From: Rhodothermales bacterium
GTDB taxonomy: Bacteria > Bacteroidota > Rhodothermia > Rhodothermales > JAHQVL01
DNA length: 40,689 bases
Direction: 5' to 3'
NCBI GenBank assembly: GCA_034439735.1
Contig: JAWXAX010000261.1
Location: 1-40,689 of the forward strand
The first letter of the stretch is position 1; each line of letters opens with the position of its first letter. The position numbers and the translations under genes are program-made. Below the pieces are notes generated by a model. That model was not told the origin of the DNA. It saw nothing but the letters and a program-made list of their open reading frames with translations, and ran no database searches. Below are positions 2,039-38,938 of this stretch, in pieces.

Positions 2039-5000
2039 CTATCTCACCCTTACCATCGTCCGCGTCTCGGTAAACGACCCGGCGCTGAGCCTCAGGACGT
2101 AGAGGCCACTGGCGGCCGGCATCCCCGCCCTCGTGCGGCCGTCCCAATGCACGACGTGCCGGCCGGCGGCCCGCTCCTCCCCATCGAGCAACACCGCCAC
2201 ACGGGCTCCGAGGGCATTGTATACCTCCAGGCGAACGGATTCCGCCTCGGGGAGATCGAATGGGATGGTGGTGGTTTCCTGGAACGGGTTGGGGAAGTTC
2301 GGGCTCAGGGCGTAGTCGATCGGGACGGCGACGGAGGCCGCGACCTCGGCCGGCGCTTCAGCGCGCGGCGCCGGGTCGATTGCTGGTTCAAACAGCAACA
2401 CATCGGCCTGGTCGACATAGACCGCGTAGCCCTGGTAGGGGCGCAGCGAGTCCGCCACGGGGCTCGTATAATCCCGCACGTCGCCAATGGCGCGGCCGGA
2501 CTCCAGCGCCAGGTTACCCACCGGCAGGGCGAACGCAAACGGATTCCCAATGAGACTCCAGCCGGCCGGCACCGGGAGGGCGTACGGCTCGTGGATGGCC
2601 TGGGTAAGCCCGGCGCCCATGTCGAAGTCGGGCGCGCCCGCGAAGGTAATGAGCCAGTACCCGCGGCCGGGGACGAGCGCCTCGATGGCGTCGAACTCCG
2701 TCAGCGTCGAGTCGCCACTCGGGCTCCCGACGGCCTCGAAGAACCGCCATTTCCGGGGATCGTAGGCCTGGAAGTCGTCGAACAGGGTGCCGGCCGGGCT
2801 GTTGTCGTCGAGTTCGAGGGGGAAGGTAACCAGGCGGTAGCTCAACCCCGGCAACGGCGCGCGCGAGCGCAGGCCTTCCATACGGACGCGGACAGAGCGT
2901 GTCGGGAAGTCGACCGGCGCGTCGAAATCGGCGCGGGTGGTGCGGCCGGCGGCGCGTACAAAGTACTCGACGCCGCGTTCGGTGATCTCCGTCGCCGGCA
3001 GTTGGAACGCAAACCCCGCCGCCTCGGCCGTCGGGGTCATCGGGACGGATCGGAAGGCCGTCTCGCCGCCGCGGCGGTAGTGGAGTTCGACGTTATCGAT
3101 GCTGAACCGGGCATCAACCGCCACGCCGGCTTCATCGACCACCGTCGCCTGGATCGTGTAGGGCTGATTCGCGGTCGCAATCGCCGGCGTAGTCGCCACA
3201 TAGAGCGGCGCCACGATGGAGGCGACGGTGACCACCAGCGTATCCACCGCCGAACCGCTGAACGCATCGGCGGCTTCGATGGCGATGCGCGCCTCGCCCG
3301 GGATGCGCTGGGTGACGACGAGGGTGTCGTTGGCGATCGACACGGCCGCCACTTCGTACTCCAGGCTGTCGGCGACGAACGTGAGCGGATCTCCATCCAG
3401 ATCCAGAAAGATGTCATGCAGCGCGATACGCAGCGCCGGTTCGCCCAGCGTCACCGTCGCCGGCGTAAACCCGTCGCCCCGCACCAGCGGACGCGCGTTG
3501 ACGGCGAAGACGCGCTCCTCGCTTTCGGCGAGCGGGTCGCCACCCTCGTCGGCGGCCGTCAGGAAAAATGCGATCACATCCAGCTCCGCCTGCGGCGGCA
3601 GGGTGGCGACGTAGGTGGATCGGTCGGCCGCCTGCACGCCCATCTCCATCCCCAGAACCGCCAGCTGGGACGCGGTGGCCGGCGCCATCGCCAGCGGTTC
3701 CTGCACGATGTCGTTCAGCCGCCAGTGCAGCTCCACGGAGGCGATCAGGGCCAGGTCTTCCGCTTCTCCGTTGAACGTGCCCGAGACGAGGATGCTGCTC
3801 CGCGCGTTGGGCACGCCCGGCGAAAACGACGGCGTCACGGGGATACCGGGCTGTTTGGACGCGATATTAGAAGATCCGACCTCCACTCCGGCGCGCTCCG
3901 CCGCGATCCGGTAATAATACACCTTCCCGTTTTCCAGCGGGGCATCCACGTAGGATGTATCCACATACCCTTCGGCGAGCACCGTCCACGCGCCGGCCTC
4001 GACGGCCGCGGGGTCGTCGGCGCGGAGGACGCGGAAGGAATCGAACACCCCGGCCGGCCGCTCCCAGCTCAGGTTGAGCTGCCGACTGCGGGGGGAGATG
4101 GACAGGCGGAAGTCTTCCAGGTTCAGCACCCGGTAGAGGCGGTCGCCGCTGCGGACGGTGTTGCCGCGGCGGTCGCTGGCGGCGACGGCGAAGCGGACCG
4201 TGTCGCCCGGCGCGGCCGGCGGGATGGAGCCCGCGAACGTCGAATCCGTCAGCGCCCGCATGACCACAAGGCTATCCACTACCCCGCCGGCGAGGCGCCA
4301 GCGTAGTGTCACGGAGGCGGGATCGAGATTATCATCCGCATCAACAATCGTGGCGACGACCTCCACGGACTCGCTGAACTTCGGCGGATCCGGGGAGAAG
4401 GTGATATCGACGATGACCGGCGCCACGGCGCGCGGCGTGGCTTCGACGGCCTCCGAACGCCCGCTGATGCCCAGCGCATTCACCGCTTCCAGCCAGTAGG
4501 TGTAGGTGGTGTCGTTCCCGACGGTCGTATCCCGGTAGGCGATTTCGACGATCTCGCCAACAATCAGCGTATCCGGGCTCGCCCCGCCGACACGACTGAG
4601 GAGGTAGGATGCCGCCCCGAGCGCCGGCTGCCAGGACAGCGCCACCTCGCGGTCGCCGGCGCTGGCGACAAGCCCGATCGGGGGATCGGGGATGGCTGGA
4701 ATCGTGGCGGAGGCTTCGTTCGAGAAGATCCCGTTTCGATCGGCAATCCGGTAGAAGTACACCTCGCCACGCGCGACGGATTCGTCCCGAAGGGTGGTAG
4801 TGTCGAGTTCGTCCTGGAGGATGTCCGCCGGCGTCAGCAAGCTGTCCGGGCGCGAGGCGTCCGTCCGATAGACGGCGAACGGCGCGCCGCCATTGTCGGT
4901 CCATGCCAGATCGACCGCCGGCGCCAGCGAGTCGACCCGAGCGACCAGCGCGATCCCGCCTGGCGGCGTCGCGACGCGGTACCCGAGTGTATCCCCCGTC

Positions 5001-6388
5001 GCCGCGTTGCCGCGGGCATCGACGGCGCGGAGCGTGAAGGCAATGGAGTCGCCGGCGGCATGCGGCGGAATGACGCCGCTGAAGCGCACGCCGTTGGACG
5101 TCGGCAGCGGCGCCTGCCGCACGCCATTGCGCCACCAGACGACCTGGACGGAGTCGGCCAGCAGGTTGTCATCCCCATCCGATACAATCGCCGAAACCGT
5201 TACGGCGTCTGAAGGCGCGGGCTCGGCCGGCGCGAACGCTACCTCGCTCACCACGGGCGGCACGGCCCGGGGGGTCGCCTGGAGGGTATCGGACAGCGCG
5301 CTCTCGCGGGCGCCGGCGCGGGCGCCGGCGCGGGCGGAGACCCGGTAGCTGTAGGATGTCCCGTTTATGACGCCCACATCCACAAACACCGTATCCGCCG
5401 TTTCGGCCAGAAATACGTCATCCCGGTAGACGCCATAGGCCTCGGCCTCGACAGTACCCTGCCAGATGAGGCGGACGGCCCCGTCGAGGCCGGCGGCATC
5501 GACCAGGACCGGCGCAGGGAGCGGCTCCTCTCCTCCAGGCGTGGCAGTCGCTTCTTCGGAAAGCGGCCCCCGGATGACGAACGTCGACCCGTCGGACCGT
5601 ATCCCCTGCCCGGAAGCGACGACCCGGTAGAAGTAGGCGACGCCGGCCGTCACATCCGTATCGGTAAAGGCGAGCCCGGACAGGCCTTCGGCCAGGATAT
5701 CCGCGTCGGTAAGCGCCCCGGCCGCGGTTGGCGCGGTGGTCCGGTAGAGGGTGTACATCAGCGCCCCGGGCGCGGCGTCCCACCGGAGGTCGATGGCGCC
5801 GGCTAGTGGGGTGGCGATAAGGGCGTCGGGCGCCGGCGGGAGGATGTTGAACTCCCCCGTCGAGGTGACGGTATCGACGCGGCGAAGCTCGCCGGCGGCG
5901 TTAAAAACTTCATCGACTACCTTGACTTCAAACGTCACGTGCCCGACCACCCCGGGCGCGCCAAACGAGTACACCGGCTCATAAAAATGATTCACGGGAT
6001 CGACTACGCTTTCGACGAGCGTCTGCCGGAGGGTCTCCTGCAGGACGCCGTCCAGCCACCAGGTGACGAACAGCGAGTCCTTCCGCTGAAACGTACTGTT
6101 GTTGCCGATCCGTGCCACGAAGGCGATGGCGTCCGGCGTCAACGGCGAGGTCGGCGTGAGGCGGACGTCATCCACATGCGGGCAATCCACCAGTGGGTTA
6201 CCCGACGGTGGTACTTGGACGCATACCGAGGGCGTCCAGCCGAAATCGGTCTGCGCGAATGCCGGCCGGGCCCCGATCCCAAGCAAAACCCCAAGCACCA
6301 GCAATACCCCCGTACGGACACGACATGTCTTGGGCGCTGAAGAGGAAGGGTCTATCTTCCCGCCATAGAGTTCTGCTCGGTGTAACAC
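2039..6388 (-). CDS. Giant secreted multidomain protein with fibronectin-III/Ig-like modules and a T9SS sorting domain
   Basis: The product has 1449 residues. An N-terminal signal peptide has its hydrophobic core in VLLVLGVLLGIGARPAFAQ (about 28-46), after an unusually long N-region. There follow at least five fibronectin-III-like modules, each with a value-rich strand and a YRV/YYR-type end, for example in the segments starting PDALIATPLAGAIDLRW, PIGLVASAGDREVALSW and LEDFRLSISPRSRQLNLSW. Between them are Ig-like modules built around DADDNLDPASVTLRW-type calcium-like loops. The last 92 residues (about 1358-1449) are a type A T9SS C-terminal domain, with the SPNFPNPF opening, VYNALGARV, and a GLYVLRL strand before a basic end. 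It is therefore expected to be exported and attached or released at the cell surface. Its role could be adhesion or matrix binding; no catalytic domain was seen. No ATG closer to the signal core is in frame. A palindromic repeat lies just upstream. Confidence 0.9.
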   Translation of the reverse strand: MLHRAELYGGKIDPSSSAPKTCRVRTGVLLVLGVLLGIGARPAFAQTDFGWTPSVCVQVPPSGNPLVDCPHVDDVRLTPTSPLTPDAIAFVARIGNNSTFQRKDSLFVTWWLDGVLQETLRQTLVESVVDPVNHFYEPVYSFGAPGVVGHVTFEVKVVDEVFNAAGELRRVDTVTSTGEFNILPPAPDALIATPLAGAIDLRWDAAPGALMYTLYRTTAPTAAGALTDADILAEGLSGLAFTDTDVTAGVAYFYRVVASGQGIRSDGSTFVIRGPLSEEATATPGGEEPLPAPVLVDAAGLDGAVRLIWQGTVEAEAYGVYRDDVFLAETADTVFVDVGVINGTSYSYRVSARAGARAGARESALSDTLQATPRAVPPVVSEVAFAPAEPAPSDAVTVSAIVSDGDDNLLADSVQVVWWRNGVRQAPLPTSNGVRFSGVIPPHAAGDSIAFTLRAVDARGNAATGDTLGYRVATPPGGIALVARVDSLAPAVDLAWTDNGGAPFAVYRTDASRPDSLLTPADILQDELDTTTLRDESVARGEVYFYRIADRNGIFSNEASATIPAIPDPPIGLVASAGDREVALSWQPALGAASYLLSRVGGASPDTLIVGEIVEIAYRDTTVGNDTTYTYWLEAVNALGISGRSEAVEATPRAVAPVIVDITFSPDPPKFSESVEVVATIVDADDNLDPASVTLRWRLAGGVVDSLVVMRALTDSTFAGSIPPAAPGDTVRFAVAASDRRGNTVRSGDRLYRVLNLEDFRLSISPRSRQLNLSWERPAGVFDSFRVLRADDPAAVEAGAWTVLAEGYVDTSYVDAPLENGKVYYYRIAAERAGVEVGSSNIASKQPGIPVTPSFSPGVPNARSSILVSGTFNGEAEDLALIASVELHWRLNDIVQEPLAMAPATASQLAVLGMEMGVQAADRSTYVATLPPQAELDVIAFFLTAADEGGDPLAESEERVFAVNARPLVRGDGFTPATVTLGEPALRIALHDIFLDLDGDPLTFVADSLEYEVAAVSIANDTLVVTQRIPGEARIAIEAADAFSGSAVDTLVVTVASIVAPLYVATTPAIATANQPYTIQATVVDEAGVAVDARFSIDNVELHYRRGGETAFRSVPMTPTAEAAGFAFQLPATEITERGVEYFVRAAGRTTRADFDAPVDFPTRSVRVRMEGLRSRAPLPGLSYRLVTFPLELDDNSPAGTLFDDFQAYDPRKWRFFEAVGSPSGDSTLTEFDAIEALVPGRGYWLITFAGAPDFDMGAGLTQAIHEPYALPVPAGWSLIGNPFAFALPVGNLALESGRAIGDVRDYTSPVADSLRPYQGYAVYVDQADVLLFEPAIDPAPRAEAPAEVAASVAVPIDYALSPNFPNPFQETTTIPFDLPEAESVRLEVYNALGARVAVLLDGEERAAGRHVVHWDGRTRAGMPAASGLYVLRLSAGSFTETRTMVRVR

Positions 6389-6405
6389 GGAGGTCTATTT
6401 TTATC

Positions 6406-6523
6406 GTCATCCCCGCGAAAGCGTGGAACCATGCGAGCTAAAATTCTGGCACAAGATGATGCCAAGATCAGCTAGTAAGGTATTCTCATGCCTTCTATGG
6501 GTCCCCGCTTTCGCGGGGATGAC
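6406..6523. repeat. Palindromic interspersed repeat, copy C
   Basis: This 118-bp segment begins GTCATCCCCGCGAAAGCG and ends CGCTTTCGCGGGGATGAC, so roughly the outer 18-23 bases are inverted repeats. The centre is AT-richer and unlike the other copies. It sits upstream of the giant surface-protein gene and downstream of the coiled-coil gene, so it could form a strong hairpin in a transcript crossing the gap and separate the two genes. The rest of 6389-6591 shows nothing else. Confidence 0.8.
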
Positions 6524-6591
6524 GGCGTTTAAAAAACGGAAGTAGGCTTTGTTTGTCAATTCGCCAGCACGAGCATTCATGATCGGGTCCA

Positions 6592-7539
6592 TCAGTTAGC
6601 CGGCGAAGGGAAAGGAGGAGGAATGGGGAGATTCTGGTCTTTGCCCGGTTTTACGATCCAGGCGATGACACCCCCCAGGATGCCGGCGCCGACGGCGGCG
6701 GTGGCGATGCGCCGGCGGCGGATCGTCAGCTTCTGTTCGGCCAGCTGCGCGGCGGCCTCGGCCTGTTGGGCACGGAGCATCGCCGCGGCCAGGGTTTCCG
6801 CCGCAATCGCTTCCGACGCGCGGGCGACTTCGAGCTGTGTGGCGGCATCTTCAAGTTCCTGGCGAGCACGGGCAGCGAGGGCCTCGGCGGAGTCCGCCTC
6901 CGCCTCGGCGCGGGAGGCGCGGAGTGTGGCGTCGATGCGGAGCGAGTCGGCGGCGCGGGCTTCGACTCGGGCGAGAGCGGCGCGAGCGGTGAGCGCGTCC
7001 ACCTGAAGGCGCGCCTGCTCGGCCTGGAAGCGTGCGATACGAGCGAGCGAATCGGCTTCGGCGGCTTCCAGGCCGGCGCTCGCGGCCAGCGCCTCGAACT
7101 CCATTGCCCGGGTACTCTCCTCCTCGACGCGCAACAACGCGAGATCCCGCTGCTCGACGGCGAGGGCAATCTCCTGTTTGGCGTCGGACGGCTTAAACAA
7201 CTCCAGATAATACCGTGAAAAAACCGCCCCTTCCGGCTCGTAGAGCGGGTCCAGTTCGCGAATCTTCTCCGCATACTGGCGGGCCATGTAGGATTTCTCC
7301 TCGCCGATCCAGGCCAGTGCCAGCAGTTTGTAGGCTTCGATGCGCTCCTTCGGGTCAGCGATGTTCTCGGGCAGGCAGGTCTCGAACTGCGCGATCACGT
7401 CGCGAAAGCGGCTGCTGTCGTACTGGCGCTGGGCGCGCCAGAGAACGAGGTCGCACGTGGCGTTCGACTGGCCGGCGGCCGGGGCGGGGGTCATTCCGAA
7501 GAGCAGGAGTGCCAGAAAGCCATAGCGTATTCGCCGCAT
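6592..7539 (-). CDS. Coiled-coil protein with signal sequence, TPR-like region and C-terminal membrane segment
   Basis: The product has 315 residues from the ATG at 7539, chosen because GAGGAAAT lies about 5-8 bases upstream and a signal sequence (MRRIRYGFLALLLFGM..., cleavage near AAGQS) follows at once. The longer open frame reads through a palindromic repeat and is not credible. Residues about 27-110 look like one or two TPR-type helical hairpins (YDSSRFRDVIAQFETCL, ERIEAYKLLALAWIGEE). About 125-268 is an Ala/Glu/Arg-rich heptad coiled coil. About 274-291 is a hydrophobic segment directly after RRRR, followed by a short Pro-rich tail. The four arginines before the last segment sit awkwardly if the coil is periplasmic, so topology is uncertain. 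It lies 119 bp downstream of the STAND gene on the same strand and may be the third member of that operon. No specific family was recognised. Confidence 0.8.
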   Translation of the reverse strand: MRRIRYGFLALLLFGMTPAPAAGQSNATCDLVLWRAQRQYDSSRFRDVIAQFETCLPENIADPKERIEAYKLLALAWIGEEKSYMARQYAEKIRELDPLYEPEGAVFSRYYLELFKPSDAKQEIALAVEQRDLALLRVEEESTRAMEFEALAASAGLEAAEADSLARIARFQAEQARLQVDALTARAALARVEARAADSLRIDATLRASRAEAEADSAEALAARARQELEDAATQLEVARASEAIAAETLAAAMLRAQQAEAAAQLAEQKLTIRRRRIATAAVGAGILGGVIAWIVKPGKDQNLPIPPPFPSPAN

Positions 7540-7658: not shown

Positions 7659-10600
7659 TCATAACATTGGGCAGTCGAAGGCTTTTTGATATACGATCTG
7701 CTGGCTCACGTACGTGGGCCACAGGCCGGACAAGTCGATGCCGGTACTCGACGCTTTCAGGGCCCGGCAGAGGTCGGTCGCCATCTCGCCCGGATCGGTC
7801 CGCCACACCTGAACGGTGCGGTCTTTCCCACCTGAAACCAGGCGCAGGTCTCCCGAGGGGCCCACGCCGAAGGCGAGCGCGTACACCCATTCCTGGTGCC
7901 GGCGGAAGACGTAGGGTCGGTCGATTTCCGCCGTCGGGTCGCGGTCGGCGAGTCGTTCCCATAGGGGCGGCCGGTCGCTACCGTGCAGATCCCACATCAT
8001 GATTGTATGTTCGACGCCTCCGTCGCCCGAGGCGAGCCAGCGGCCGTCCGGGCTGAAAGCGAGGGCGTTGATCACGGCCGCCGTACCTGGCAGCACGGCC
8101 AGCTCGGCGGCGCCCTCTTCGCCGTCGATGTGCCAGAGGCGCACCGAGAAGTCGTCGCCGCCAGCGGCGACGAGGGGAGCCGAAGGGCTGAAGGCGAGGG
8201 CATTGATGGGCTCGAGCCGGCCATCGGTATCCGGCTGAAGGACGACCGGATCGACGTCGCCCTCTTGCCAGTCCCACCACAGGCGCACCATGCCGTCTTC
8301 GCTGCCGGCGCCCAGCACGGGTTCGCCATCGATTTCGCCGAACGCCAGGATATTCACCCAGTTCGTATCGGCAATGCCGGTACGCGCGATGCCCGGCAAC
8401 GGCAGGAGGGACGGCGCGGCGCCGGCACGATCCAGATCCCATAGAAGCACCTCCGGACGCCGGCCGGCGGAGGCCAGCCATCGTCCGTCCGGGCTGTAGG
8501 CAACGGCCCAGACTTCGCCCGGGCTCTCCAGCACGCGGACTGCCGCGCTTGTGGTGAGGTCCCAGATTCGAATCGTCTTGTCGCGGCTGCCGCTGGCCAG
8601 CTGGTCCGGATTCACCGGATTAAAGGCCACGCTTCGCACGGGGCCGGTGTGCTCGCCGAGGAGGACCGGCGTTGTCGCGGAGGCAAACCGGTCGGCCGGC
8701 CACACGCCTACAAAATTGGTGTCGCTCCCGGCGGCGATCCATCGATCGTTGAAGGCCACGGCGCGCACCTGACCGGACATGGGTAACGGAACGGGATCCG
8801 GCTCGAGGCCTCTGAAATCCAGCGTGGCGTCGTTGTAGATTTCCCGAAGGGCATCGTGGACGTTGTCCTGCAAAGCGCCGCCGCTGCCGGTGCTGAGAAA
8901 GTAAGCCGCCTGGGCCAGCGCCAGGGCGCGATCCGTCTCGCTCAGTTTGTACAACCGGAGTGCATTGTAGGAGGAAACGAGCGCCGAGGAGCGCATACGC
9001 TCGACCTGCGTTTCCAGCCGTGAAAAATCGCGTTCAGCCGCCGTCCGCTGTGCGATAAAGATAATCACAATCAGCGCAAGCGCCAGGGCGGCCAGGGTGG
9101 AGTAAACAACCACCCGGTTGCGCCGCTTTCGGGCGGCTTCCTCACTGCTTGTAGCGAGAAAGCGGCGTGCTTCGTCGGCTTCCGGTCGGTACCGGCTCGT
9201 CCACTGGGGCACAAAACCGGTACGCTGCTCCAACTCTCGCGCACGGGCGAGTTCGTTGCCGCTCCAGAGATACTCGCGCGGGTCATCATCGGGCTTCTCG
9301 ACAAGCGCTCGGTCATACCGAATCGCCGCATTCACGAGATCGATATAGGTCTGCGCATCGGCCCCCTCATCCGCCATCCACCGCTGGAGTTGGCGCCAGC
9401 CCAGCATGAGGCTTTCGTGGGAGATTTCAACCATCGTATCCTCCGTCAGAGGCGTTTCGGGCGATGGCATCAGCAGCGAGTGTTCTTCCGTACGAAAGGC
9501 CTCCACGACGGCCTGCACGTCGCTCAGCGCCACCAGATCGCGGGTCATCTGCGCCCGATTCGAAGACAGGACGCTGGCGATCCGCCAGAGGTCGCCCAGG
9601 CTCGTTCTGTAGCGGATGCCGCGCCCGTCATACGTGAAGCCGGTAAGCCCACGAAAGACCTTCGCGCACAACGCGCGCTGGCGTTCCGTCTCCAGTGTGC
9701 CGAACACCTCCTCGGCGTGCCAGTCGATCGCATGTTGGATCTCCCCGATCGCTTCGTAGTGCCGCTTGAGGATGGGCCCGTGCCCGCCCTCTCCCATCCA
9801 CCGATCCCAGGTGCGGCTCAGGGCGTGCTGGAGGACGACCAGGTGGGCGGGGTCCTCGACATCGCGGACGAATTCGTCGAGCGCGTCCCGCTCGAAGGCC
9901 GCGCCGGCGATGGCCGCCGGCCCCTTGATGGCCTCCTCGATCTCGTTGGGCAGCATGCGCGACACCAGGTAGAGCCCGCTGTTGATGGCGTCCGGCAGGT
10001 CCTCGTACCGGGCCGCCTCGCCAACGAAGTCGGACCGGAGCGTGAGGCACACATAGACCGGGTACCGCCACTGCTGGAGCACGCCCAGCAGGAGGCGGAC
10101 AAAGTGCCGCTTCGTTTCCTGCTGGCGTTCGTCTTCCCTCGCGCTCTCCCAGGCGTTCCTCGGGAACAGCTCTTCGAACTGGTCGACGATGACGAGCAGA
10201 TTGACGCGCGGCCCATCCATCGCGCCGTGGAATGGATGCAATTCCTCGTAGAGATCGATCAGGTGGAGCAGCGGCCCTTCCCCAGCGGCCCCCACCCGTA
10301 GCCGCGCCTCGATGGCGCCGGCGTCGGTGGCCTCCTCCCCAAACGCTCGCCCGAGGGCGCGCGCGAGGTTGCCGATGGGATCCTCCTGAGGCCGCAGATA
10401 CGCCACCTTCCAGATGGAGCCGGCATCCGCCATGTAGCCGCCGTAGAGCGCCGGCAGCATCCCCGAGGTGACCAACGACGACTTCCCGCTGCCCGACACG
10501 CCGAGGACGGCCAGGAAGCGCATCTCGGCCAACTTCGCCGTCATGGCGTCGACGTGCCGATCCCGGCCGAAGAAAAAGTGCTCCTCGCCGCGGCGATGGT

Positions 10601-11123
10601 CGCAGGGCGCCTCGGCGACGCGCCGGCGATAGGGTCGCAGCCCCGGATAGGGCTTGTCCGTCACAGCCAGCGAGCGGTCGGCCGCCGTGTCGACCTGGCG
10701 CACGAACGCGTCCAGCAGGTGATCTTCATGGCCGGCGAGCCCGTCGATGGCGGTCGGTTCCAGGCGGAGCAGGCACATTTTGTCCTCGTCCGGCGCGCCG
10801 TTGACGTAGGTGGCGTACGCCCGCAGCGGCCGCGCCCGCAGATACCCTGAGGCCTTCTTGATCGCGAGATCCTTGCTGTATCGCCAGTTGTCGTCGCCAT
10901 CGCCATAAAACAGGAGCACGGCGTCGCAGGCCATGAGGAGCGTCCGCTCGGCTTCGCGCAGCTGGCTGGGGGTTCCGTTGAACAGCGGCGTCTCCACGTC
11001 CAGGTCGTGCTTACGCAGGTATTTGTAGATCGGAATGATCTGCTTCCGATCCGACTCGAGGCAGATCAGATAGACCATCTTCCGCTCGGCGGAAGGCTGT
11101 TCGACAACCGGATCCGTGGGCAT
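7659..11123 (-). CDS. Membrane STAND NTPase: TIR-like domain, nSTAND1 module, transmembrane helix, WD40 propeller
   Basis: The product has 1154 residues. Residues 15-146 are a TIR-like alpha/beta domain (VYLIC, IPIYKYLR, DAVLLFYGDGDDNW, GAPDEDK). From 159 comes the nSTAND1 opening PYPGLRPYRRR and FFFGRDRHVDAM. The Walker A is GVSGSGKSS (208-216), and the Walker B/sensor stretch LLVIVDQFEELF (309-320) is typical of the family. A single transmembrane segment lies at about 670-691. Seven WD40 blades follow (about 782-1110), with repeats such as SGSRDKTIRIWD and SGGKDRTVQVW. STAND proteins are signal-gated switches in which ligand binding to the repeat domain drives ATP-dependent oligomerisation. 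With one membrane pass the propeller should be outside the cytoplasm and the TIR-like domain inside (inference). The gene begins 13 bp after the CHAT protease gene, so they are co-transcribed. The ATG has no Shine-Dalgarno. The protein could serve immunity, regulated death or development. Confidence 0.9.
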   Translation of the reverse strand: MPTDPVVEQPSAERKMVYLICLESDRKQIIPIYKYLRKHDLDVETPLFNGTPSQLREAERTLLMACDAVLLFYGDGDDNWRYSKDLAIKKASGYLRARPLRAYATYVNGAPDEDKMCLLRLEPTAIDGLAGHEDHLLDAFVRQVDTAADRSLAVTDKPYPGLRPYRRRVAEAPCDHRRGEEHFFFGRDRHVDAMTAKLAEMRFLAVLGVSGSGKSSLVTSGMLPALYGGYMADAGSIWKVAYLRPQEDPIGNLARALGRAFGEEATDAGAIEARLRVGAAGEGPLLHLIDLYEELHPFHGAMDGPRVNLLVIVDQFEELFPRNAWESAREDERQQETKRHFVRLLLGVLQQWRYPVYVCLTLRSDFVGEAARYEDLPDAINSGLYLVSRMLPNEIEEAIKGPAAIAGAAFERDALDEFVRDVEDPAHLVVLQHALSRTWDRWMGEGGHGPILKRHYEAIGEIQHAIDWHAEEVFGTLETERQRALCAKVFRGLTGFTYDGRGIRYRTSLGDLWRIASVLSSNRAQMTRDLVALSDVQAVVEAFRTEEHSLLMPSPETPLTEDTMVEISHESLMLGWRQLQRWMADEGADAQTYIDLVNAAIRYDRALVEKPDDDPREYLWSGNELARARELEQRTGFVPQWTSRYRPEADEARRFLATSSEEAARKRRNRVVVYSTLAALALALIVIIFIAQRTAAERDFSRLETQVERMRSSALVSSYNALRLYKLSETDRALALAQAAYFLSTGSGGALQDNVHDALREIYNDATLDFRGLEPDPVPLPMSGQVRAVAFNDRWIAAGSDTNFVGVWPADRFASATTPVLLGEHTGPVRSVAFNPVNPDQLASGSRDKTIRIWDLTTSAAVRVLESPGEVWAVAYSPDGRWLASAGRRPEVLLWDLDRAGAAPSLLPLPGIARTGIADTNWVNILAFGEIDGEPVLGAGSEDGMVRLWWDWQEGDVDPVVLQPDTDGRLEPINALAFSPSAPLVAAGGDDFSVRLWHIDGEEGAAELAVLPGTAAVINALAFSPDGRWLASGDGGVEHTIMMWDLHGSDRPPLWERLADRDPTAEIDRPYVFRRHQEWVYALAFGVGPSGDLRLVSGGKDRTVQVWRTDPGEMATDLCRALKASSTGIDLSGLWPTYVSQQIVYQKAFDCPML

Positions 11124-11136
11124 CGCTGGTGGGAGG

Positions 11137-12771
11137 TTAGGAATTTAGCTTGTCGACGAAATCAGCCATCAAGGCGTCCGAGAATCCCTGGAGTCCGTTG
11201 ATGAAGGCCTGCTCTTCGAGGTCGATCAAAAACTGCTTGTCCTCGTCGGGCGTGCCGCAGATGTACAGGTAGTTCGCGCGCAGCGGGGGGCGTGTTTTCA
11301 GGGCTTCTTTAATGTTCGCGTTGCGCTCCCGGCGCCAGGCGTCGCCGCCGTTGCCCCAGAGGATCAACACGGCGTCGGCCGTCGCCAGGGCTTCGCGGTC
11401 GGCGGCCAGAATGGCGGCTTCATCCCCCTCGAAGGGCGATTTATCCACCGAAAAACCGGAAACGCGCAGGTATTTAAAGACCGGCATCAAGAACTCCTTG
11501 TCGCCCGGTTTGCAGAGGATGTAGACAGACCGGGTCGCGCCGTTGGTGGCCGGCGCGGGGGCCGGCTCGGGTTCAGGCGCTTTTGCCCGTTTCGGCTTAA
11601 ACAGCACCCCATCCGGCGCCTGCATGAACAGGACCGGCGTCGCCCATTCGAGGGTGCCGGGCTCTTTGTTAAACATATCCAGCCGCCCCTCATTGACGGC
11701 GTAGTCAACCGGAGCGCCATCGGCGAGCGCTGCATAAAACGTCTCGGCGAAGGCGATCGCGCCGGGGTCCGAGATCGGCTTTTGCATCGCAATCACGGCC
11801 GGCACGCCGGCGCTGACGATGGCCGGGGCCACGCCGGCAAACGGATGCCGCTCGTTCGCGACGCGGTTATTCGCCGTCTCGCACGCATTGAGGAAAACGA
11901 GGCGGATCGAGTGAGCCTTCGAGAGGATGAAATAATACAGGTTGTTCGCGCTCAGGTCGTCGCGTTTGCCGGCGTCGTCCTCCATCACCAGGACCCCCTC
12001 GCCGTCGTCCTTGAACACGCCGTGCCCCATGAAATGGAGCACGTGGAAGTCGGGCCCTTCCTCGAGCTTCGCCATCAACTTCTCGGTCGTCGCATGCTCC
12101 AGAATCTCAACCTGAAGCGGCGACGCATCGCCGCCGAACCGTTCGAGGATCTTCTTCTTTTCGACCTCCAGATTCAGTTTCGGCAGCACCGGATCGTCCG
12201 GGTTGGCCATCACGAGCAGCATGCGGAGCGGCCCGTCGTAGGGGAGCGCCTCGATCGTCGCCGCCGTCTTTGGACGGGCGATGTTCAGGTACCGCACGAC
12301 CGAGAAGTCGCGGGGCAGCAGGTTGAGGAAGCTGTTCTGGGAGTCGTCGAAGAGGAGCTCCCACGGGAGGCCGACGATCTTGTCCATACCGGACATCTTG
12401 AGGTCCAGCACGAGCTTCACCCGCAGGGCGATGTCCGGCTGCAACTGCGTCGCACCCAGGCTTTTCATGAACGCGTCGCGCGCGCCCTCCTTGATGAGTT
12501 CGCGGAAGAGTTTCAGCCCGAGTTCATCGCCCGAAATCGCCGTTTTCGGCTTGCGCTCGCGTTCGCCGCGGGTGGGGGCGCCCGTGGCGGTATCCGGGGG
12601 GGCCGGCGCATCCACTGGCGCATCCGTCGGCGCAAAGGAGGCCATGTTGAACCACAGGTCACCCACCGACGTGCCGGAGGCCGAGTCCTGCAGGGTCACT
12701 GCGTACTCTTGCCCCTTCATCGGACCGATCTTCAGCGTGAAGTCCTGATATGTGATGGCTCCTTTATGCAT
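11137..12771 (-). CDS. CHAT-domain (caspase-like) protease with C-terminal TIR-like domain
   Basis: The product has 544 residues from the ATG at 12771, preferred over a GTG 21 bp upstream because GGGGAG sits at normal spacing before it. Residues 1-45 are a short beta-rich segment (YQDFTLKIGP) common at the front of CHAT proteins. A Pro/Thr-rich linker follows. The CHAT protease spans about 172-392, with catalytic His in HFMGHG (H250) and catalytic Cys in FLNACET (C297), both intact. After a second Pro/Ala-rich linker (395-412), residues 414-543 form a TIR-like domain (RSVYILC, MPVFKYLR, DAVLILWGNGGDAW, GTPDEDK). This clearly resembles the N-terminus of the STAND protein encoded next. CHAT proteases are separase/caspase relatives that cleave partner proteins on activation. 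As the first gene of the operon it is transcribed away from the sigma-factor gene. Its substrate is unknown; the coiled-coil protein is one candidate. Confidence 0.92.
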   Translation of the reverse strand: MHKGAITYQDFTLKIGPMKGQEYAVTLQDSASGTSVGDLWFNMASFAPTDAPVDAPAPPDTATGAPTRGERERKPKTAISGDELGLKLFRELIKEGARDAFMKSLGATQLQPDIALRVKLVLDLKMSGMDKIVGLPWELLFDDSQNSFLNLLPRDFSVVRYLNIARPKTAATIEALPYDGPLRMLLVMANPDDPVLPKLNLEVEKKKILERFGGDASPLQVEILEHATTEKLMAKLEEGPDFHVLHFMGHGVFKDDGEGVLVMEDDAGKRDDLSANNLYYFILSKAHSIRLVFLNACETANNRVANERHPFAGVAPAIVSAGVPAVIAMQKPISDPGAIAFAETFYAALADGAPVDYAVNEGRLDMFNKEPGTLEWATPVLFMQAPDGVLFKPKRAKAPEPEPAPAPATNGATRSVYILCKPGDKEFLMPVFKYLRVSGFSVDKSPFEGDEAAILAADREALATADAVLILWGNGGDAWRRERNANIKEALKTRPPLRANYLYICGTPDEDKQFLIDLEEQAFINGLQGFSDALMADFVDKLNS

Positions 12772-13030
12772 TCGAATGACTCCCCGATTCACGTCGTGCG
12801 CTTATCGGACTACACACCGGGGGGGTGAGAAAGGGCTCATCGTGCTTCCAGACGCAATAGCGCTTTAGTATAGCATTATATGCTCGAATAAAACAATAAT
12901 GGATACCCTGTCGCATGGTACAGGAATGTACGCCTTTTCCGGGCGTCTAACGGCGTGCGGCGCACCTCTCCGGTGCGCGCCGGCGTGTTACGCGTTCCAC
13001 CACGCCAGCGCGTATCATTCTCATACGCCT
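12772..13030. promoter_or_regulatory. Divergent intergenic region between the CHAT operon and the sigma-factor operon
   Basis: This 259-bp gap separates two outward-reading operons and must hold both promoters. An AT-rich core lies at about 12860-12900. Within it AGCAT/ATGCT (12872-12884, spacer TAT) is a small perfect inverted repeat, and its minus-strand reading contains TATAAT. No well-spaced -35 partner or Bacteroidota-type TAnnTTTG box was found, so the promoter assignment is tentative. Confidence 0.35.
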
Positions 13031-13654
13031 ATGGATTCACCGACTCGCCCGGGGCCAACCGCCCGTACGCCTCCTCAGGACCAACGCCGGGTTCAATTCC
13101 GGCAGTGGGCTCGCGGACTGCGCGACGCCGATCGCGCGGCCTATGCGGCGCTGTACCGGGAGATGAGCGATCCGCTCGTACGATACGCGTACTCGATCTT
13201 ACATGATGAGGCCGGCGCGTACGATATCCTGCAGGACGTATTCCTCAAATTATGGGAACGGCGTGCGTCCATCGACCCGGAATCCTCCCTGCAGGCCCTC
13301 CTGTACACCATGACGCGGAACGCCTGCCTCAACGTGCGGCGGCGCAACGGGTACGTGGTGCAGGAGGCGGACGACGAGTCCGGCCCGCTGGCCCGGCTGG
13401 AAAGTGTCGAACTCGCCGCCGGCCAGGCCATCGACGCCAACGCGCTCCAGCAACGGATGGATGCCTGGATCCAGGAGCTGCCCGACCGCCGGCGCGAGGC
13501 GTTTCTGCTCAGCCGGCAGCACGACCTCAGCCACAGGGACATCAGCGATCTCATGGGCCTGAGCGAGCGCACTGTAAATACGCATATTTTCCTCGCGCTG
13601 AAGGACCTGCGCGCCCGTCTTACCGCGTGGCAAAACGAGAAGAGAACACCGTGA
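13031..13654 (+). CDS. ECF (FecI-type) RNA polymerase sigma factor
   Basis: The product has 207 residues from ATG 13031; an in-frame extension upstream is Cys/His-rich and unlike the family. Sigma region 2 covers about 35-100 (AYAALYREMSDPLVRYAYSI, YDILQDVFLKLWERR). Region 4 is at about 150-200, with a helix-turn-helix in HRDISDLMGLSERTVNTHIF. It lacks regions 1 and 3, as expected for the ECF group. The stop overlaps the FecR-type start by GTGA, which indicates translational coupling. It should direct transcription of the receptor gene downstream once released by the anti-sigma factor. There is no clear Shine-Dalgarno at the chosen start. Confidence 0.92.
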   Translation: MDSPTRPGPTARTPPQDQRRVQFRQWARGLRDADRAAYAALYREMSDPLVRYAYSILHDEAGAYDILQDVFLKLWERRASIDPESSLQALLYTMTRNACLNVRRRNGYVVQEADDESGPLARLESVELAAGQAIDANALQQRMDAWIQELPDRRREAFLLSRQHDLSHRDISDLMGLSERTVNTHIFLALKDLRARLTAWQNEKRTP

Positions 13655-14616
13655 ACGCATCCGATCGACATACGCCGCTTCCCGACGACCTCGGCGAACC
13701 CCTGCGGGACCTCTCGGCCGACGACCGGGCCGGGCTCGCGGAGGTCTGGCGCCTCGCCAGCCCGTCGACGAAGGGATTCCCCGACCCGGCACGCCTCGAC
13801 GCCATCTGGCGCCAGCTCGATGCCGCCACGCTTCCGGCCGGCGCCGATGCCCGCCGCGATCGCGCGCCGGCCCCCCGGGGCCGCGCGTCGCGCTGGTTTG
13901 CCGGCGCCACGGCCGCCCTGGTCGTCGCCGCCATCGCGGTGACGATGTGGTTCCGCCCCCTTTCGGCCACTGCCCCCCTGGGCGAACGCCTCGTCGTCTC
14001 CCTGGCCGACGGCTCGCGCATCGAACTGAACAGCGGCGCCACACTCCGCTACCCGCGCCGGTTCGGCGGCATTCGGGCGGTTGAACTCGAGGGCGAGGCC
14101 TTCTTCGACGTCGCCACCGACGGCCGGCCATTTATCGTCGAAACCTTCGACGCCGACGTCACGGTCCTCGGCACCACCTTCAACGTACGCGCCTGGCCCA
14201 ACGACCCGACGCCCGGCACCACCGTCACGCTGGCCACGGGACGGGTGCGTCTCGCTTCGCGCGGCGTGGAAGCCCTCGCACCCGTCGTCCTCGAACCGGG
14301 GCAGACGGCTACCGTCGGCGACGGACGGATCGATGTGAGCGCTCCGGATTCCACGATCGCCGGCCTGATGCTCGCCTGGAGAAGGGGCGATTTTATCTAC
14401 CGCGACCGTCAGCTCGGCTCCATCCTCACGGATATCGAACGTCGCTTCGCCACCCGCCTGACACTCACCCCGACCCATCTGCTCACCACGCGCTACAGCG
14501 TCTCGATCCGAAAACCAGACACCGCAGAAGTCATCATCCGCGATCTCTGCGGAGCGCTCGGGTTGCAGTACCGGGAAACTCGCGAGGGTTTCGAACTGTT
14601 CGAACCGGGAACGTAG
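13651..14616 (+). CDS. FecR-family anti-sigma factor/transmembrane regulator
   Basis: The product has 321 residues from GTG 13651, which overlaps the sigma-factor stop codon. A cytoplasmic N-terminal part (about 1-75, the sigma-binding side in this family) precedes one transmembrane helix at about 83-102 (ATAALVVAAIAVTMWF). The periplasmic FecR domain follows, with VVSLADGSRIELNSGATLRY, VELEGEAFFDVA and VTVLGTTFNVRAW, all hallmark strands. The C-terminal part (about 240-321, FIYRDRQLGSILTDIERRF) looks like the STN-type fold that contacts the receptor signalling domain. It holds the ECF sigma factor inactive until the outer-membrane receptor signals. The longer open frame that starts within the sigma gene is an artefact of overlapping frames. 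Confidence 0.9.
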   Translation: MNASDRHTPLPDDLGEPLRDLSADDRAGLAEVWRLASPSTKGFPDPARLDAIWRQLDAATLPAGADARRDRAPAPRGRASRWFAGATAALVVAAIAVTMWFRPLSATAPLGERLVVSLADGSRIELNSGATLRYPRRFGGIRAVELEGEAFFDVATDGRPFIVETFDADVTVLGTTFNVRAWPNDPTPGTTVTLATGRVRLASRGVEALAPVVLEPGQTATVGDGRIDVSAPDSTIAGLMLAWRRGDFIYRDRQLGSILTDIERRFATRLTLTPTHLLTTRYSVSIRKPDTAEVIIRDLCGALGLQYRETREGFELFEPGT

Positions 14617-14621
14617 CTCGT

Positions 14622-17513
14622 ATGGCGCATCCCCTTTCCCTGCCACTCTCTGCCGGTCCCGCGCGTCGTCGCGTATGGGCTGTTGTGCTGTTCAGCCTCG
14701 TGCTGATCGCGCCGGCGGCGTACGGGCAGGAAGGAGCTACCTCCGCCGCGAATACAGCGTCCCGCCACTCGATCGCCGCCCTGAACGTGCCGCTCGATCT
14801 CGCGCTGGAGGCCCTCGTCGAAAAAACGGCCCTCAACCTCGTCTACGCCTCCGCCCTGGTAGCCGGCAAAACGACCTCCTGCCAGGTCGACGAGGCGCTG
14901 CTGGACGAAGTGCTCGCCTGCCTCCTCCGCGGCACCGGGTTGGACTTCCTCCGCCTCTCATCGGGCACCTACGTACTCGTGACCGACGCCCGGGCCGTGC
15001 CGGCCTTTGGGGCCCTCTCCGGCCAGGTGATCGACGCCACATCCGGCGAGCCTCTCGCGGATGCGCATGTGCTCCTGGCCGATGCCTCCGGCGGCGCCGT
15101 CACCAACCGCGCCGGCCGCTTCGCCTTCAATCGGCTCCTTCCGGGCGTCTATCCCCTCCTCGTCTCCTACATCGGCTACGAACGCGCCGTGGACACCCTG
15201 TGGGTCGACGCCGGCGCCGCGACGTCCGTGCAGATCGCGCTGGACGCCGAGCCGATCATCACCTCCCCCATCGTGATCTCCGAGCTCACCTGGCGGCTTC
15301 CCTCCGAGGACCTCGGCGGCGGCTCGCGTAGCGCCGTTTCGCTTGAAGAGGCCTCCGCCGCCGGCGACGTCTTCCGCAGCCTGCACACCATCGTGGGTGT
15401 GCGTGTGGGGGACGCACTGTCCGACGTCCACGTCCAGGGTGGGCAGTCCGGCGATCACCAGCATGTCCTGGACGGCGCGCCTATCTTCATTCCGATCCCC
15501 AACGGCGGCGTAGTGGGGCCATTTAGTCCGTTCGCGCTGAGCCGGCTCAGCGTGCGAAAGGCCGGCTATAGCGTCCGCTACGGCAGCCACCTGGCCGGCG
15601 TCGTCGAGGCGGACCACGCGCTGGCCGACGGCCCGACCGCGCTCACGATTCAGGTGGATCCGCTCAGCCTCAATGCCCGCCTGACCGGCCAGTTTGCCGG
15701 GCGCGACGGCGTACGTACCCGCTGGATGTTCGCCGGCCGGCGGAGCCTGTGGTCCGTGCTCCATCCTCAATCCCTGGCCACCCACTTCACGCGGTGGAGC
15801 GCGCCCGATCTATTCCTCCTCCAAACCCTGGCGCCCCCCCCGCTCGTCGAAACTGACTCCCCGCCGTCCCACACGCATTCCATCCGGTTCGTGCCCGACT
15901 CCCTCGGCGCCGGAGCGTTGTCCGGCAACCGCCTGCAGGACGAGTTCCGGTTCTCGGATCTCCACGGCGCGGTACGCGTCGCTTTCTCTCCCGAAAAAAG
16001 CCTCTACGCCTCGTTCTACCGCGGCAGCAATGGCTTCGGCGGCGTGGATGCGCTGGCGCCGACGTTTGCGCAGGGGCCGGCGCAAACCACGCAGACGGCA
16101 TCGTTCACGAGCCGTTATTCCTGGTCCAACGCGATGGGGCAGATGCGCTACGAAAGCATCATCGGCAAGGCGTCGTTCGCCTCCGTCGGCGGCTGGGTGA
16201 GCCAGTTCGATCTGTCGCAGGCGTTCGGTCGGGACTACCGCCCTGCGGATGCCGGGGACAGCGCGGAGAGCGATGACGACGATGCCGCAACCGCCGGCTG
16301 GCTGCGCCATGCCTCCAGCGACGTCAATGCCATCCACGAGGGAGGCTTGCGTGCTGAAATCAACCACAGCGTGTCCTCCTCCCACTTCCTCACCGCAGGC
16401 CTCGAAAGCCGGTATAGTGCCAGCGAATTCGCGCTGGAATTACCCGGCTGGCGCGACGGCAGCCTCGCCTCGCAAAGCAGCGCCCGCCTCCAGGCCGGGC
16501 ATCGCCGCTCGAGCCTGTATGCCGAGGACCAGCTACGTATCGGATCGCGCGCCCATCTCGAACTCGGCCTCCGCCTCACGAATCTCGGCAACGACCGGGC
16601 CGTCTATGCTGAGCCGCGTATCGCCATTCGCTATGACGCCGCCAGCGGCCCCCTGGGCCCCTGGGCCTTCCGCGGCGCCATCGGCCTGTTCCGGCAGTTC
16701 GTGAACCAGTTCGACGTCGCCGCGATGGATGTCAACGCCGTCCTGCCCTATATGCGGTTCTGGCTGCCCATCAGCGGCGACGTAGCCCCACCACGCGCCC
16801 ACCACGCCACGGCATCGCTGCTCGCCATGCCCGCCCCCGGATGGCAGATCCAGCTCGAAACCTACTACAAGGACCAGCCTCACGTGCTGGTGATCGACTA
16901 CGCCGGCCTGGCCACCCCCGGGGCGTCCACGGCGGCGTGGAGCCGGCAAGATGAGGTGCTAACCCACGCCGAAGGAGTCGCCTACGGCGCCGGTCTGTCG
17001 ATCGAGAAAAAAACCGACCGGCTTGCCGCCCAGGCCGCCTACGAATACAGCGTGGCGGAGCAGCGCATCCCGAACCGGTTCGACGGCGCCTGGCTGAGCG
17101 CCCCCTGGAACGTCCCCCACCGCGTCACCCTCGCGCTGGACGCCCGCGTGGCCTCGTACTGGACCGCCTCGTTGCGCTGGCAGGCCAGCATGGGCCGGTC
17201 CTGGGCTTTTCGCGACGCGTATTACAACTACCTCGAGCCGGAGGACCGAACCAGGCATTTCGATCCGTACGACCTATCCGACCCGACGGCCCACCGACTG
17301 CCCATGTACAATCGCCTGGACGCCGGCGTGGCCTACGCCCGCCAGGTACGCGACGCCCGCGTGCAGGTACGCCTATCCCTTGCCAACCTGCTGGCCGCGT
17401 ACAACGTGGATGAGTGGAGCCTCGCCTACGACGAGGCTTCCGCCACCTATACAAAAATCGAACGCCCCCTCGCCCCGTTCTTGCCGACCCTCACCGTCCG
17501 GCTGGGGTTCTGA
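14622..17513 (+). CDS. TonB-dependent outer-membrane receptor with STN signalling domain
   Basis: The product has 963 residues and starts 5 bp after the FecR-type gene. The signal peptide ends near AAYGQE (about residue 36). The STN/secretin-like signalling domain spans about 48-120 (LNVPLDLALEALVEKTALNLVY). A carboxypeptidase-regulatory-like beta domain (about 128-215) begins ALSGQVIDATSGEPLADAHV. The plug (about 240-330) includes VHVQGGQSGDHQHVLDGAP and YSVRYGSHLAGVVEAD. A 22-strand-type beta barrel continues to the terminal phenylalanine of LTVRLGF. Together with the two upstream genes it forms a FecIRA-like cell-surface signalling system in which ligand binding signals through FecR to the sigma factor. 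The ligand is not predictable; nothing siderophore- or glycan-specific lies next to it. Confidence 0.9.
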   Translation: MAHPLSLPLSAGPARRRVWAVVLFSLVLIAPAAYGQEGATSAANTASRHSIAALNVPLDLALEALVEKTALNLVYASALVAGKTTSCQVDEALLDEVLACLLRGTGLDFLRLSSGTYVLVTDARAVPAFGALSGQVIDATSGEPLADAHVLLADASGGAVTNRAGRFAFNRLLPGVYPLLVSYIGYERAVDTLWVDAGAATSVQIALDAEPIITSPIVISELTWRLPSEDLGGGSRSAVSLEEASAAGDVFRSLHTIVGVRVGDALSDVHVQGGQSGDHQHVLDGAPIFIPIPNGGVVGPFSPFALSRLSVRKAGYSVRYGSHLAGVVEADHALADGPTALTIQVDPLSLNARLTGQFAGRDGVRTRWMFAGRRSLWSVLHPQSLATHFTRWSAPDLFLLQTLAPPPLVETDSPPSHTHSIRFVPDSLGAGALSGNRLQDEFRFSDLHGAVRVAFSPEKSLYASFYRGSNGFGGVDALAPTFAQGPAQTTQTASFTSRYSWSNAMGQMRYESIIGKASFASVGGWVSQFDLSQAFGRDYRPADAGDSAESDDDDAATAGWLRHASSDVNAIHEGGLRAEINHSVSSSHFLTAGLESRYSASEFALELPGWRDGSLASQSSARLQAGHRRSSLYAEDQLRIGSRAHLELGLRLTNLGNDRAVYAEPRIAIRYDAASGPLGPWAFRGAIGLFRQFVNQFDVAAMDVNAVLPYMRFWLPISGDVAPPRAHHATASLLAMPAPGWQIQLETYYKDQPHVLVIDYAGLATPGASTAAWSRQDEVLTHAEGVAYGAGLSIEKKTDRLAAQAAYEYSVAEQRIPNRFDGAWLSAPWNVPHRVTLALDARVASYWTASLRWQASMGRSWAFRDAYYNYLEPEDRTRHFDPYDLSDPTAHRLPMYNRLDAGVAYARQVRDARVQVRLSLANLLAAYNVDEWSLAYDEASATYTKIERPLAPFLPTLTVRLGF

Positions 17514-38869: not shown

Positions 38870-38938
38870 GATTTCCGGTTGGAAATGAAACCGTCCGAAA
38901 TGTACAAACAATCCGGATGACGTCGCGCCGCTCGCCGC

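What the first reader, a model, noticed from the sequence alone, without database searches (positions are those of the whole stretch)
7659..12771. CHAT protease and WD40-STAND NTPase share the same TIR-like domain in one operon
The C-terminus of the CHAT protease (residues 414-543) and the N-terminus of the STAND protein (15-146) align over their full length. Shared landmarks are VY..., P[IV][YF]KYLR, DAVL[IL]..G.G.D.W and PLRA...G[AT]PDEDK; by hand about one third of positions are identical. The catalytic His and Cys, and Walker A and B, are intact. This is the layout expected if signal-driven STAND oligomerisation recruits the protease by like-with-like contact, as death domains do with caspases and as effector-associated domains do in bacterial conflict systems. 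The likely single membrane pass puts the WD40 sensor on the far side from the protease, so the signal may come from outside the cytoplasm.
Basis: partly seen in the sequence, partly recalled or inferred. Interest (0 to 1): 0.88.

Follow-up and report, generated by a model that had tools for sequence, protein, structure and literature searches.

The report
Surface-linked switch recruiting a caspase-like protease
A bacterial gene pair encodes a caspase-like protease and a membrane-spanning molecular switch that carry two copies of the same inactive, TIR-shaped docking domain, next to exported proteins that may supply the signal; relatives in other Bacteroidota couple the same switch to other effectors, which makes it a plausible and testable bacterial counterpart of an apoptosome.

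Summary
CHAT residues 416-544 and STAND residues 17-146 are homologous (39% identity, E=4e-24); catalytic His250/Cys297 and the Walker motifs are present. No Pfam or NCBIfam model covers the shared domain. Models of both copies match TIR folds best, but the catalytic Glu is missing, so it is a TIR-shaped, probably non-enzymatic adaptor. HMM searches show it widely: 109 of 197 genomes of one Cytophagales family, at the C-terminus of TIR-DUF4062, cyclase-TIR-DUF4062 or CHAT-DUF4062 proteins. In 30 of 33 loci it lies directly upstream of an nSTAND1 gene; in one the two are a single polypeptide. So effector-STAND coupling is well supported. Strict like-with-like recruitment is not: in every two-gene relative the STAND lacks the domain, so a separate copy on both partners is so far unique to this window; the two copies are sisters (86/81). 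The class uses the same pair with kinase-TM-PEGA proteins, and Cytophagales use counterparts with nSTAND1-TM-WD40, which supports an extracytoplasmic WD40. No defence genes lie nearby. Verdict: new variant of effector-associated-domain STAND systems; mechanism inferred.

The parts
11137..12771 (-). CHAT protease gene, 544 aa
   Evidence: ORF; Pfam CHAT 119-379, E 1.9e-34; His250 and Cys297 present
11140..11529 (-). TIR-fold adaptor domain, CHAT copy (residues 415-544)
   Evidence: 39% identity to the STAND copy, E 4e-24; AF2 pLDDT 73.7; Foldseek best hit TIR 5for, RPS4/RRS1 TIR TM 0.66-0.68
7659..11123 (-). nSTAND1-TM-WD40 gene with N-terminal adaptor, 1154 aa
   Evidence: ORF; Pfam nSTAND1 E 4.8e-74 and WD40 E 4.5e-42
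10686..11078 (-). TIR-fold adaptor domain, STAND copy (residues 16-146)
   Evidence: AF2 pLDDT 68.8; Foldseek top hits RRS1/RPS4 TIR and TIR-STING
9309..10652 (-). nSTAND1 NTPase domain (158-605), Walker A at 208, Walker B at 309
9054..9110 (-). predicted transmembrane helix (672-690), N-terminus inside
   Evidence: KD 2.79; K/R 5 before and 3 after; same position in 6 Cytophagales relatives
7782..8774 (-). WD40 beta-propeller repeats (about 784-1114)
6592..7539 (-). gene 3: exported protein with TPR-like N-domain, coiled coil, C-terminal hydrophobic segment and LPIPPPFPSPAN tail (start read at ATG 7539)
   Evidence: N-domain (7186-7470) homologous to the gene after nSTAND1 in Cytophagales, phmmer E 1e-5 to 2e-9; HMM hits in 41 of 240 class genomes
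2039..6388 (-). gene 4: 1449-aa secreted FN3 protein with C-terminal FlgD_ig/T9SS-type sorting region
   Evidence: Pfam fn3 and FlgD_ig; Por_Secre_tail below cut-off; homologues follow gene 3 in 7 of 7 tail-type class loci with room

Best explanation
The operon encodes a trans-envelope STAND switch. A surface FN3 protein and an exported TPR-like protein (genes 4 and 3) feed an extracytoplasmic signal to the WD40 propeller of the membrane-spanning STAND protein. The cytoplasmic nSTAND1 NTPase then oligomerises. Catalytically dead TIR-fold domains on the STAND and on the CHAT protein dock the protease onto the oligomer and activate it by proximity, much as Apaf-1 does with caspase-9, and CHAT cleaves cytoplasmic target(s). 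Shown here by sequence: the homology of the two domains, their fold class, loss of the catalytic Glu, conserved pairing of adaptor-effectors with nSTAND1, the conserved TM, and the conserved exported partners. Inferred: signal direction, oligomerisation, docking partner, protease activation, target and physiological purpose.
For: Domain homology; sister relation of the two copies, 86/81; TIR fold for both. At the TIR catalytic position (Trp+4) 60 of 64 adaptors have K, R or Q; STAND has K and CHAT has R. Same adaptor under different effectors: TIR-DUF4062, guanylate cyclase-TIR-DUF4062, CHAT-DUF4062. Adaptor gene directly upstream of nSTAND1 in 30 of 33 loci plus one TIR-DUF4062-adaptor-nSTAND1 single chain (L152). 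TM and N-in topology conserved. Exported partners conserved in Cytophagales; in the window's class the same gene 3/FN3 pair goes with Ser/Thr kinase-TM-PEGA proteins. Precedent for effector and STAND sharing an adaptor: PMC7159879, PMC8195603.
Against: Every two-gene relative examined has an nSTAND1 protein with at most 63 residues before the NTPase motif, so no adaptor on the STAND side. In Cytophagales the N-terminal TIR domain often lacks the canonical W-C-x-x-E, so the relatives' effector may itself be a scaffold. Gene 4 of the window is not clearly homologous to the Cytophagales FN3 proteins (E 0.067). No interaction or activity data exist, and AF2 models are of moderate confidence.
Confidence: 0.5

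Rival explanations
1. The adaptor docks directly on the nSTAND1 protein in trans, as it must in relatives whose STAND has no copy. The extra copy on the window's STAND then acts in cis, occupying that site as a regulator or competitor, rather than pairing with the CHAT copy.
For: 30 two-gene loci with adaptor only on the effector; in the fusion L152 the adaptor sits immediately N-terminal to nSTAND1, the same place as in the window's STAND.
Against: TIR-type domains are known for TIR-TIR contacts (general knowledge), and the two window copies are each other's closest relatives, as in other effector-associated domains.
Confidence: 0.25
2. Anti-phage abortive-infection system: the STAND senses phage and unleashes the protease.
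For: CHAT, TIR and STAND are common defence parts; the CHAT protein matches PADLOC SAVED_CHAT; DUF4062 proteins defend against phage (PMC13174449).
Against: No PADLOC hit in ten neighbouring window proteins. In Cytophagales the adaptor is found in over half of one family's genomes and the operon sits beside queA/menC in five of the eight named loci, with queA also near it in L158, unlike a mobile defence island. The partners are exported, with a surface FN3 protein.
Confidence: 0.2
3. The shared domain is a small-molecule sensor (for example for NAD+ or ADP-ribose) used in parallel by both proteins, with no mutual contact.
For: The TIR/DUF4062 fold class binds NAD+ (PMC13174449); weak profile similarity to DUF4062; conserved polar positions.
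Against: The catalytic Glu is not conserved and the window copies lack acidic residues at both candidate positions.
Confidence: 0.12
4. The second copy is a recent duplication or fusion with no functional meaning.
For: Found on both partners only in this genome among those searched.
Against: Both copies keep the fold-defining and family-conserved residues at 37-39% identity, implying long retention under selection.
Confidence: 0.07

Closest known systems
Effector-associated-domain (EAD) STAND/NTPase conflict systems (Kaur et al. 2020, PMC7159879; 2021, PMC8195603)
   Same: One small non-enzymatic domain on the NTPase and a second copy on an effector from the adjacent gene; the two copies are closest to each other; effectors vary; nSTAND1 is one of the cores.
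   Different: The published EADs are mostly alpha-helical (EAD4, EAD5 and EAD10 alpha+beta); this one has a TIR fold and matches no EAD model. The core spans the membrane and travels with exported partners. Most relatives have the domain on the effector only.
DUF4062 TIR-like NADases: Swarozyc, TEP1, NWD1 (PMC13174449)
   Same: TIR-like fold next to a STAND-type NTPase; in TEP1, NWD1 and NWD2 DUF4062-NACHT(-WD40) mirrors adaptor-nSTAND1-WD40; relatives carry a true DUF4062-like domain just before the adaptor.
   Different: The adaptor lacks the catalytic Glu and is not hit by the DUF4062 model; the window's effector activity is a protease.
Apaf-1 apoptosome (CARD-NB-ARC-WD40 plus CARD-caspase-9)
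   Same: Adaptor-STAND-WD40 switch plus adaptor-bearing caspase-clan protease.
   Different: TIR fold instead of CARD, nSTAND1 instead of NB-ARC, and a membrane helix between NTPase and propeller.
EAD8-nSTAND1-lectin plus EAD8-trypsin at DGR loci (PMC10907252)
   Same: nSTAND1 core recruiting a protease through a shared adaptor, predicted.
   Different: Different adaptor, protease and sensor; no diversity-generating retroelement was seen here (not searched for specifically).

Membership tests
Effector-associated domain (EAD) | One copy on the core NTPase, another on an effector, adjacent genes | tested here: met
   Window CHAT and STAND. In relatives only the effector carries it.
[quoted passage not shown]
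   Sister pair, bootstrap/SH-aLRT 86/81, in 88% of bootstrap trees.
Effector-associated domain (EAD) | Same domain fused to varied effectors | tested here: met
   CHAT, TIR, guanylate cyclase-TIR.
Effector-associated domain (EAD) | Matches one of the described EAD or bacterial death-like domain models | tested here: not met
   No Pfam hit for either copy at E up to 10. This would be a new EAD type.
Effector-associated domain (EAD) | Homotypic binding | not testable with these tools
   No complex prediction or binding assay available.
TIR domain | TIR fold | tested here: met
   Foldseek: 8 of 8 hits with E<=0.001 are TIR-domain structures; best hit 5for TIR for the CHAT copy.
TIR domain | Match to TIR sequence models | tested here: not met
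   No Pfam TIR hit.
TIR domain | Catalytic Glu in helix C | tested here: not met
   K, R or Q at Trp+4 in 60 of 64; window copies K and R. The register rests on the conserved Trp.
DUF4062 | Pfam DUF4062 match and catalytic Glu | tested here: not met
   No Pfam hit; hhalign to the relatives' DUF4062-like domain: probability 42%, E 2.6e-4.
CHAT protease | CHAT fold and His-Cys dyad | tested here: met
   E 1.9e-34; His250 and Cys297.
nSTAND1 NTPase | nSTAND1 profile with Walker A and B | tested here: met
   E 4.8e-74; Walker motifs.
Antiviral STAND (Avs-like) defence | Located among defence genes | tested here: not met
   No PADLOC hit in ten neighbours; only the CHAT and STAND themselves have weak or generic PADLOC matches.
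Antiviral STAND (Avs-like) defence | Protects from phage | not testable with these tools
   Needs an experiment.

The most novel reading that the evidence does not exclude
A new adaptor class: catalytically dead TIR-fold domains that couple a membrane-spanning, surface-informed STAND ATPase to interchangeable effectors (CHAT protease, TIR, cyclase) across Bacteroidota. It would be a trans-envelope, TLR/apoptosome-like pathway that is vertically maintained rather than a mobile phage-defence cassette.
Probability: 0.35. Interest if true: 0.85.

Novelty: new variant of a known kind. Interest (0 to 1): 0.72.

Why it matters
If right, bacteria use enzyme-dead TIR-fold domains as recruitment adaptors, the role TIRs have in animal Toll-like receptor signalling, with an ATPase-WD40 switch and a caspase-like protease as in apoptosis, but across a cell envelope. 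The adaptor is common enough (over half the genomes sampled in one Cytophagales family, some of them finished genomes) to be tested in cultured organisms. The work also gives a sequence handle (adaptor HMM next to nSTAND1) and names two overlooked exported partners.

Tried and rejected
Pfam, NCBIfam and PDB sequence searches for the shared domain gave nothing relevant. Plasmids and viral contigs gave no relatives. The first two-row profile missed almost all relatives in the window's class; a 12-row profile found them. hhalign of the adaptor against the relatives' canonical TIR domain gave no similarity, so 'TIR' is a statement about fold, not close family. Hits at G214, G015 and G020 were partial or unrelated ORFs and were discarded. 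The idea that the adaptor always comes in pairs on both partners was rejected. A defence-island setting was rejected. sigma70/terminator scans were uninformative.
Full report
OBSERVATION. On the minus strand lie a CHAT gene (12771-11137, 544 aa) and, 13 nt downstream, an nSTAND1-WD40 gene (11123-7659, 1154 aa). BLASTP aligns CHAT 416-544 with STAND 17-146 at 39% identity, E=4e-24. CHAT keeps His250 and Cys297; STAND keeps Walker A and B. The stretch is covered by no Pfam or NCBIfam model, and only these two copies exist in the host genome.

WHAT THE DOMAIN IS. AlphaFold models of both copies (pLDDT 68.8 and 73.7) have the order bA-aA-bB-aB-bC-aC-bD-bE-aE. The CHAT copy has one further helix between bD and bE. 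Against the PDB all eight matches of the STAND copy at E<=0.001 are TIR-domain structures (plant RRS1/RPS4, TIR-STING); the CHAT copy's only match at that level is the TIR domain 5for, and it superposes on RPS4/RRS1 TIR at TM 0.66-0.68. By sequence the nearest thing is the DUF4062-like domain of its own relatives (hhalign probability 42%, E 2.6e-4), not their canonical TIR domain. DUF4062 was recently reported as a TIR-like NADase family (PMC13174449). Across 64 distinct adaptors the helix-C Trp is kept in 62; the residue four further on, where a TIR NADase has its catalytic Glu, is K, R or Q in 60 (window: K and R). At the alternative register, Trp+7, most relatives have Asp but the window copies have Ala and Asn. 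So it is a TIR-shaped, predicted non-enzymatic domain. The register is an inference from the conserved Trp.

WHERE ELSE IT OCCURS. A two-row profile found nothing in 245 class genomes beyond the window itself and weak hits in Cytophagales and one other family. Those hits were the C-terminus of TIR-DUF4062 proteins lying immediately upstream of nSTAND1 genes. A scan of 84,980 species genomes with one conserved motif gave eight Cytophagales-type loci (the window's own genome may be left out of that collection). A 12-row profile finds the adaptor in 109 of 197 genomes of one Cytophagales family, in 12 of 395 phylum genomes (two of those, G015 and G020, are partial matches judged spurious), and in the class in four convincing genomes: the window's own; G001 of the same family (TIR version, L121); and G159/G160, where CHAT (about 40% identical) is fused to a DUF4062-like domain and the adaptor next to nSTAND1-TM. 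L153 has a guanylate cyclase in front of TIR-DUF4062-adaptor. Of 33 loci analysed in one pass, 30 have the adaptor gene directly upstream of nSTAND1 (28 within 45 nt), one (L152) is a single chain TIR-DUF4062-adaptor-nSTAND1, one ends at the contig edge, and one (L162) lacks the STAND. Four of the loci carry a second adaptor protein about 5 kb upstream.

WHAT IS PECULIAR TO THE WINDOW. In every two-gene relative the STAND begins within 63 residues of the nSTAND1 motif, so it has no adaptor. Only the window has separate copies on both partners. The two are sisters (86/81; 88% of bootstraps; long branches elsewhere in this small tree, so moderate support). The domain therefore did not evolve for homotypic recruitment in general: effector-STAND coupling is ancestral, and like-with-like pairing is at most a refinement here.

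THE REST OF THE OPERON. Downstream lie gene 3 (7539-6592; signal peptide, TPR-like domain, coiled coil, C-terminal hydrophobic segment and LPIPPPFPSPAN tail) and gene 4 (6388-2039; 1449 aa, FN3 and FlgD_ig, with a sub-threshold T9SS sorting match). In Cytophagales the order is HEAT-repeat membrane protein, TIR-DUF4062-adaptor, nSTAND1-TM-WD40, TPR-like plus beta-barrel protein, lipoprotein-like protein, large exported protein; its TPR-like part is homologous to gene 3 (E 1e-5 to 2e-9). The large exported proteins are analogous rather than clearly homologous to gene 4 (E 0.067). In the window's class the gene-3 domain occurs in 41 of 240 genomes, often after Ser/Thr kinase-TM-PEGA genes, in one case also with a PP2C gene. 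All seven members with a proline-rich tail and enough downstream sequence are followed by an FN3 protein homologous to gene 4 (E 5e-31 to 2e-64); none of 12 without the tail is. So the window's envelope module is a class-typical part wired to a STAND-CHAT core instead of a kinase. The hydrophobic helix after nSTAND1 is in the same place in the six Cytophagales STANDs tested, with more K/R before than after it. With the exported partners, this supports WD40 outside the cytoplasm.

MECHANISM. Most likely: an extracytoplasmic cue, through FN3 and gene 3, reaches WD40; nSTAND1 oligomerises; dead TIR-fold domains bring CHAT into proximity and activate it. Sequence shows the parts and their association; every dynamic step is inferred. 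Main rival: the adaptor docks on nSTAND1 itself, and the STAND copy is a cis competitor.

DEFENCE OR NOT. No PADLOC hit in ten window neighbours. The queA gene lies upstream in five of the eight named Cytophagales loci and in L158 and L162, and menC in those five and L162; with presence in over half of that family's genomes this looks vertically kept. Defence is not excluded.

COMPARISON AND NOVELTY. The layout meets the published EAD pattern (PMC7159879, PMC8195603), except that the fold is TIR and no described EAD model matches. Searches of the held papers found no description of this pairing; nSTAND1 itself appears in only two held papers. I rate it a new variant of a known kind.

Noticed in passing
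L058-L077 (class relatives); G000:C14 and G000:C75 in the own genome: A recurrent module in the window's class: Ser/Thr kinase-TM-PEGA, gene-3-like protein, FN3 surface protein. Gene-3 members with a proline-rich LPxPPxxP-like tail are followed by FN3 in 7 of 7 cases with room; members without it in 0 of 12.
   Followed up: partly
L149, L150, L151, L155: A second adaptor protein about 5 kb upstream in the same operon: DUF4062-adaptor of about 300 aa in three loci, a full TIR-DUF4062-adaptor in L155.
   Followed up: partly
L020-L027, L149-L168: N-terminal TIR domains of many Cytophagales effectors have a degenerate helix-C motif, so the NADase itself may be dead; L116, L160 and L161 keep W-C-x-x-E.
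   Followed up: partly
L093, L094, L098, L099: Other class relatives have CHAT-TM-exoplasmic proteins; in L098 and L099 these lie next to a caspase-like-nSTAND protein, a different protease-STAND arrangement.
   Followed up: no
window 6405-6524: 28-nt inverted repeat (93% complementary) of dispersed-repeat type between gene 3 and the FN3 gene; a 'WIPAFAGMT'-coding repeat lies between the STAND and gene 3.
   Followed up: no
window 12899-17513: ECF sigma factor, FecR-like regulator and STN/TonB-dependent receptor, divergent from the operon.
   Followed up: no
window 35330-38911: Hybrid sensor histidine kinase with a two-component regulator propeller, beside an SdrD-like surface protein gene.
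   Followed up: no
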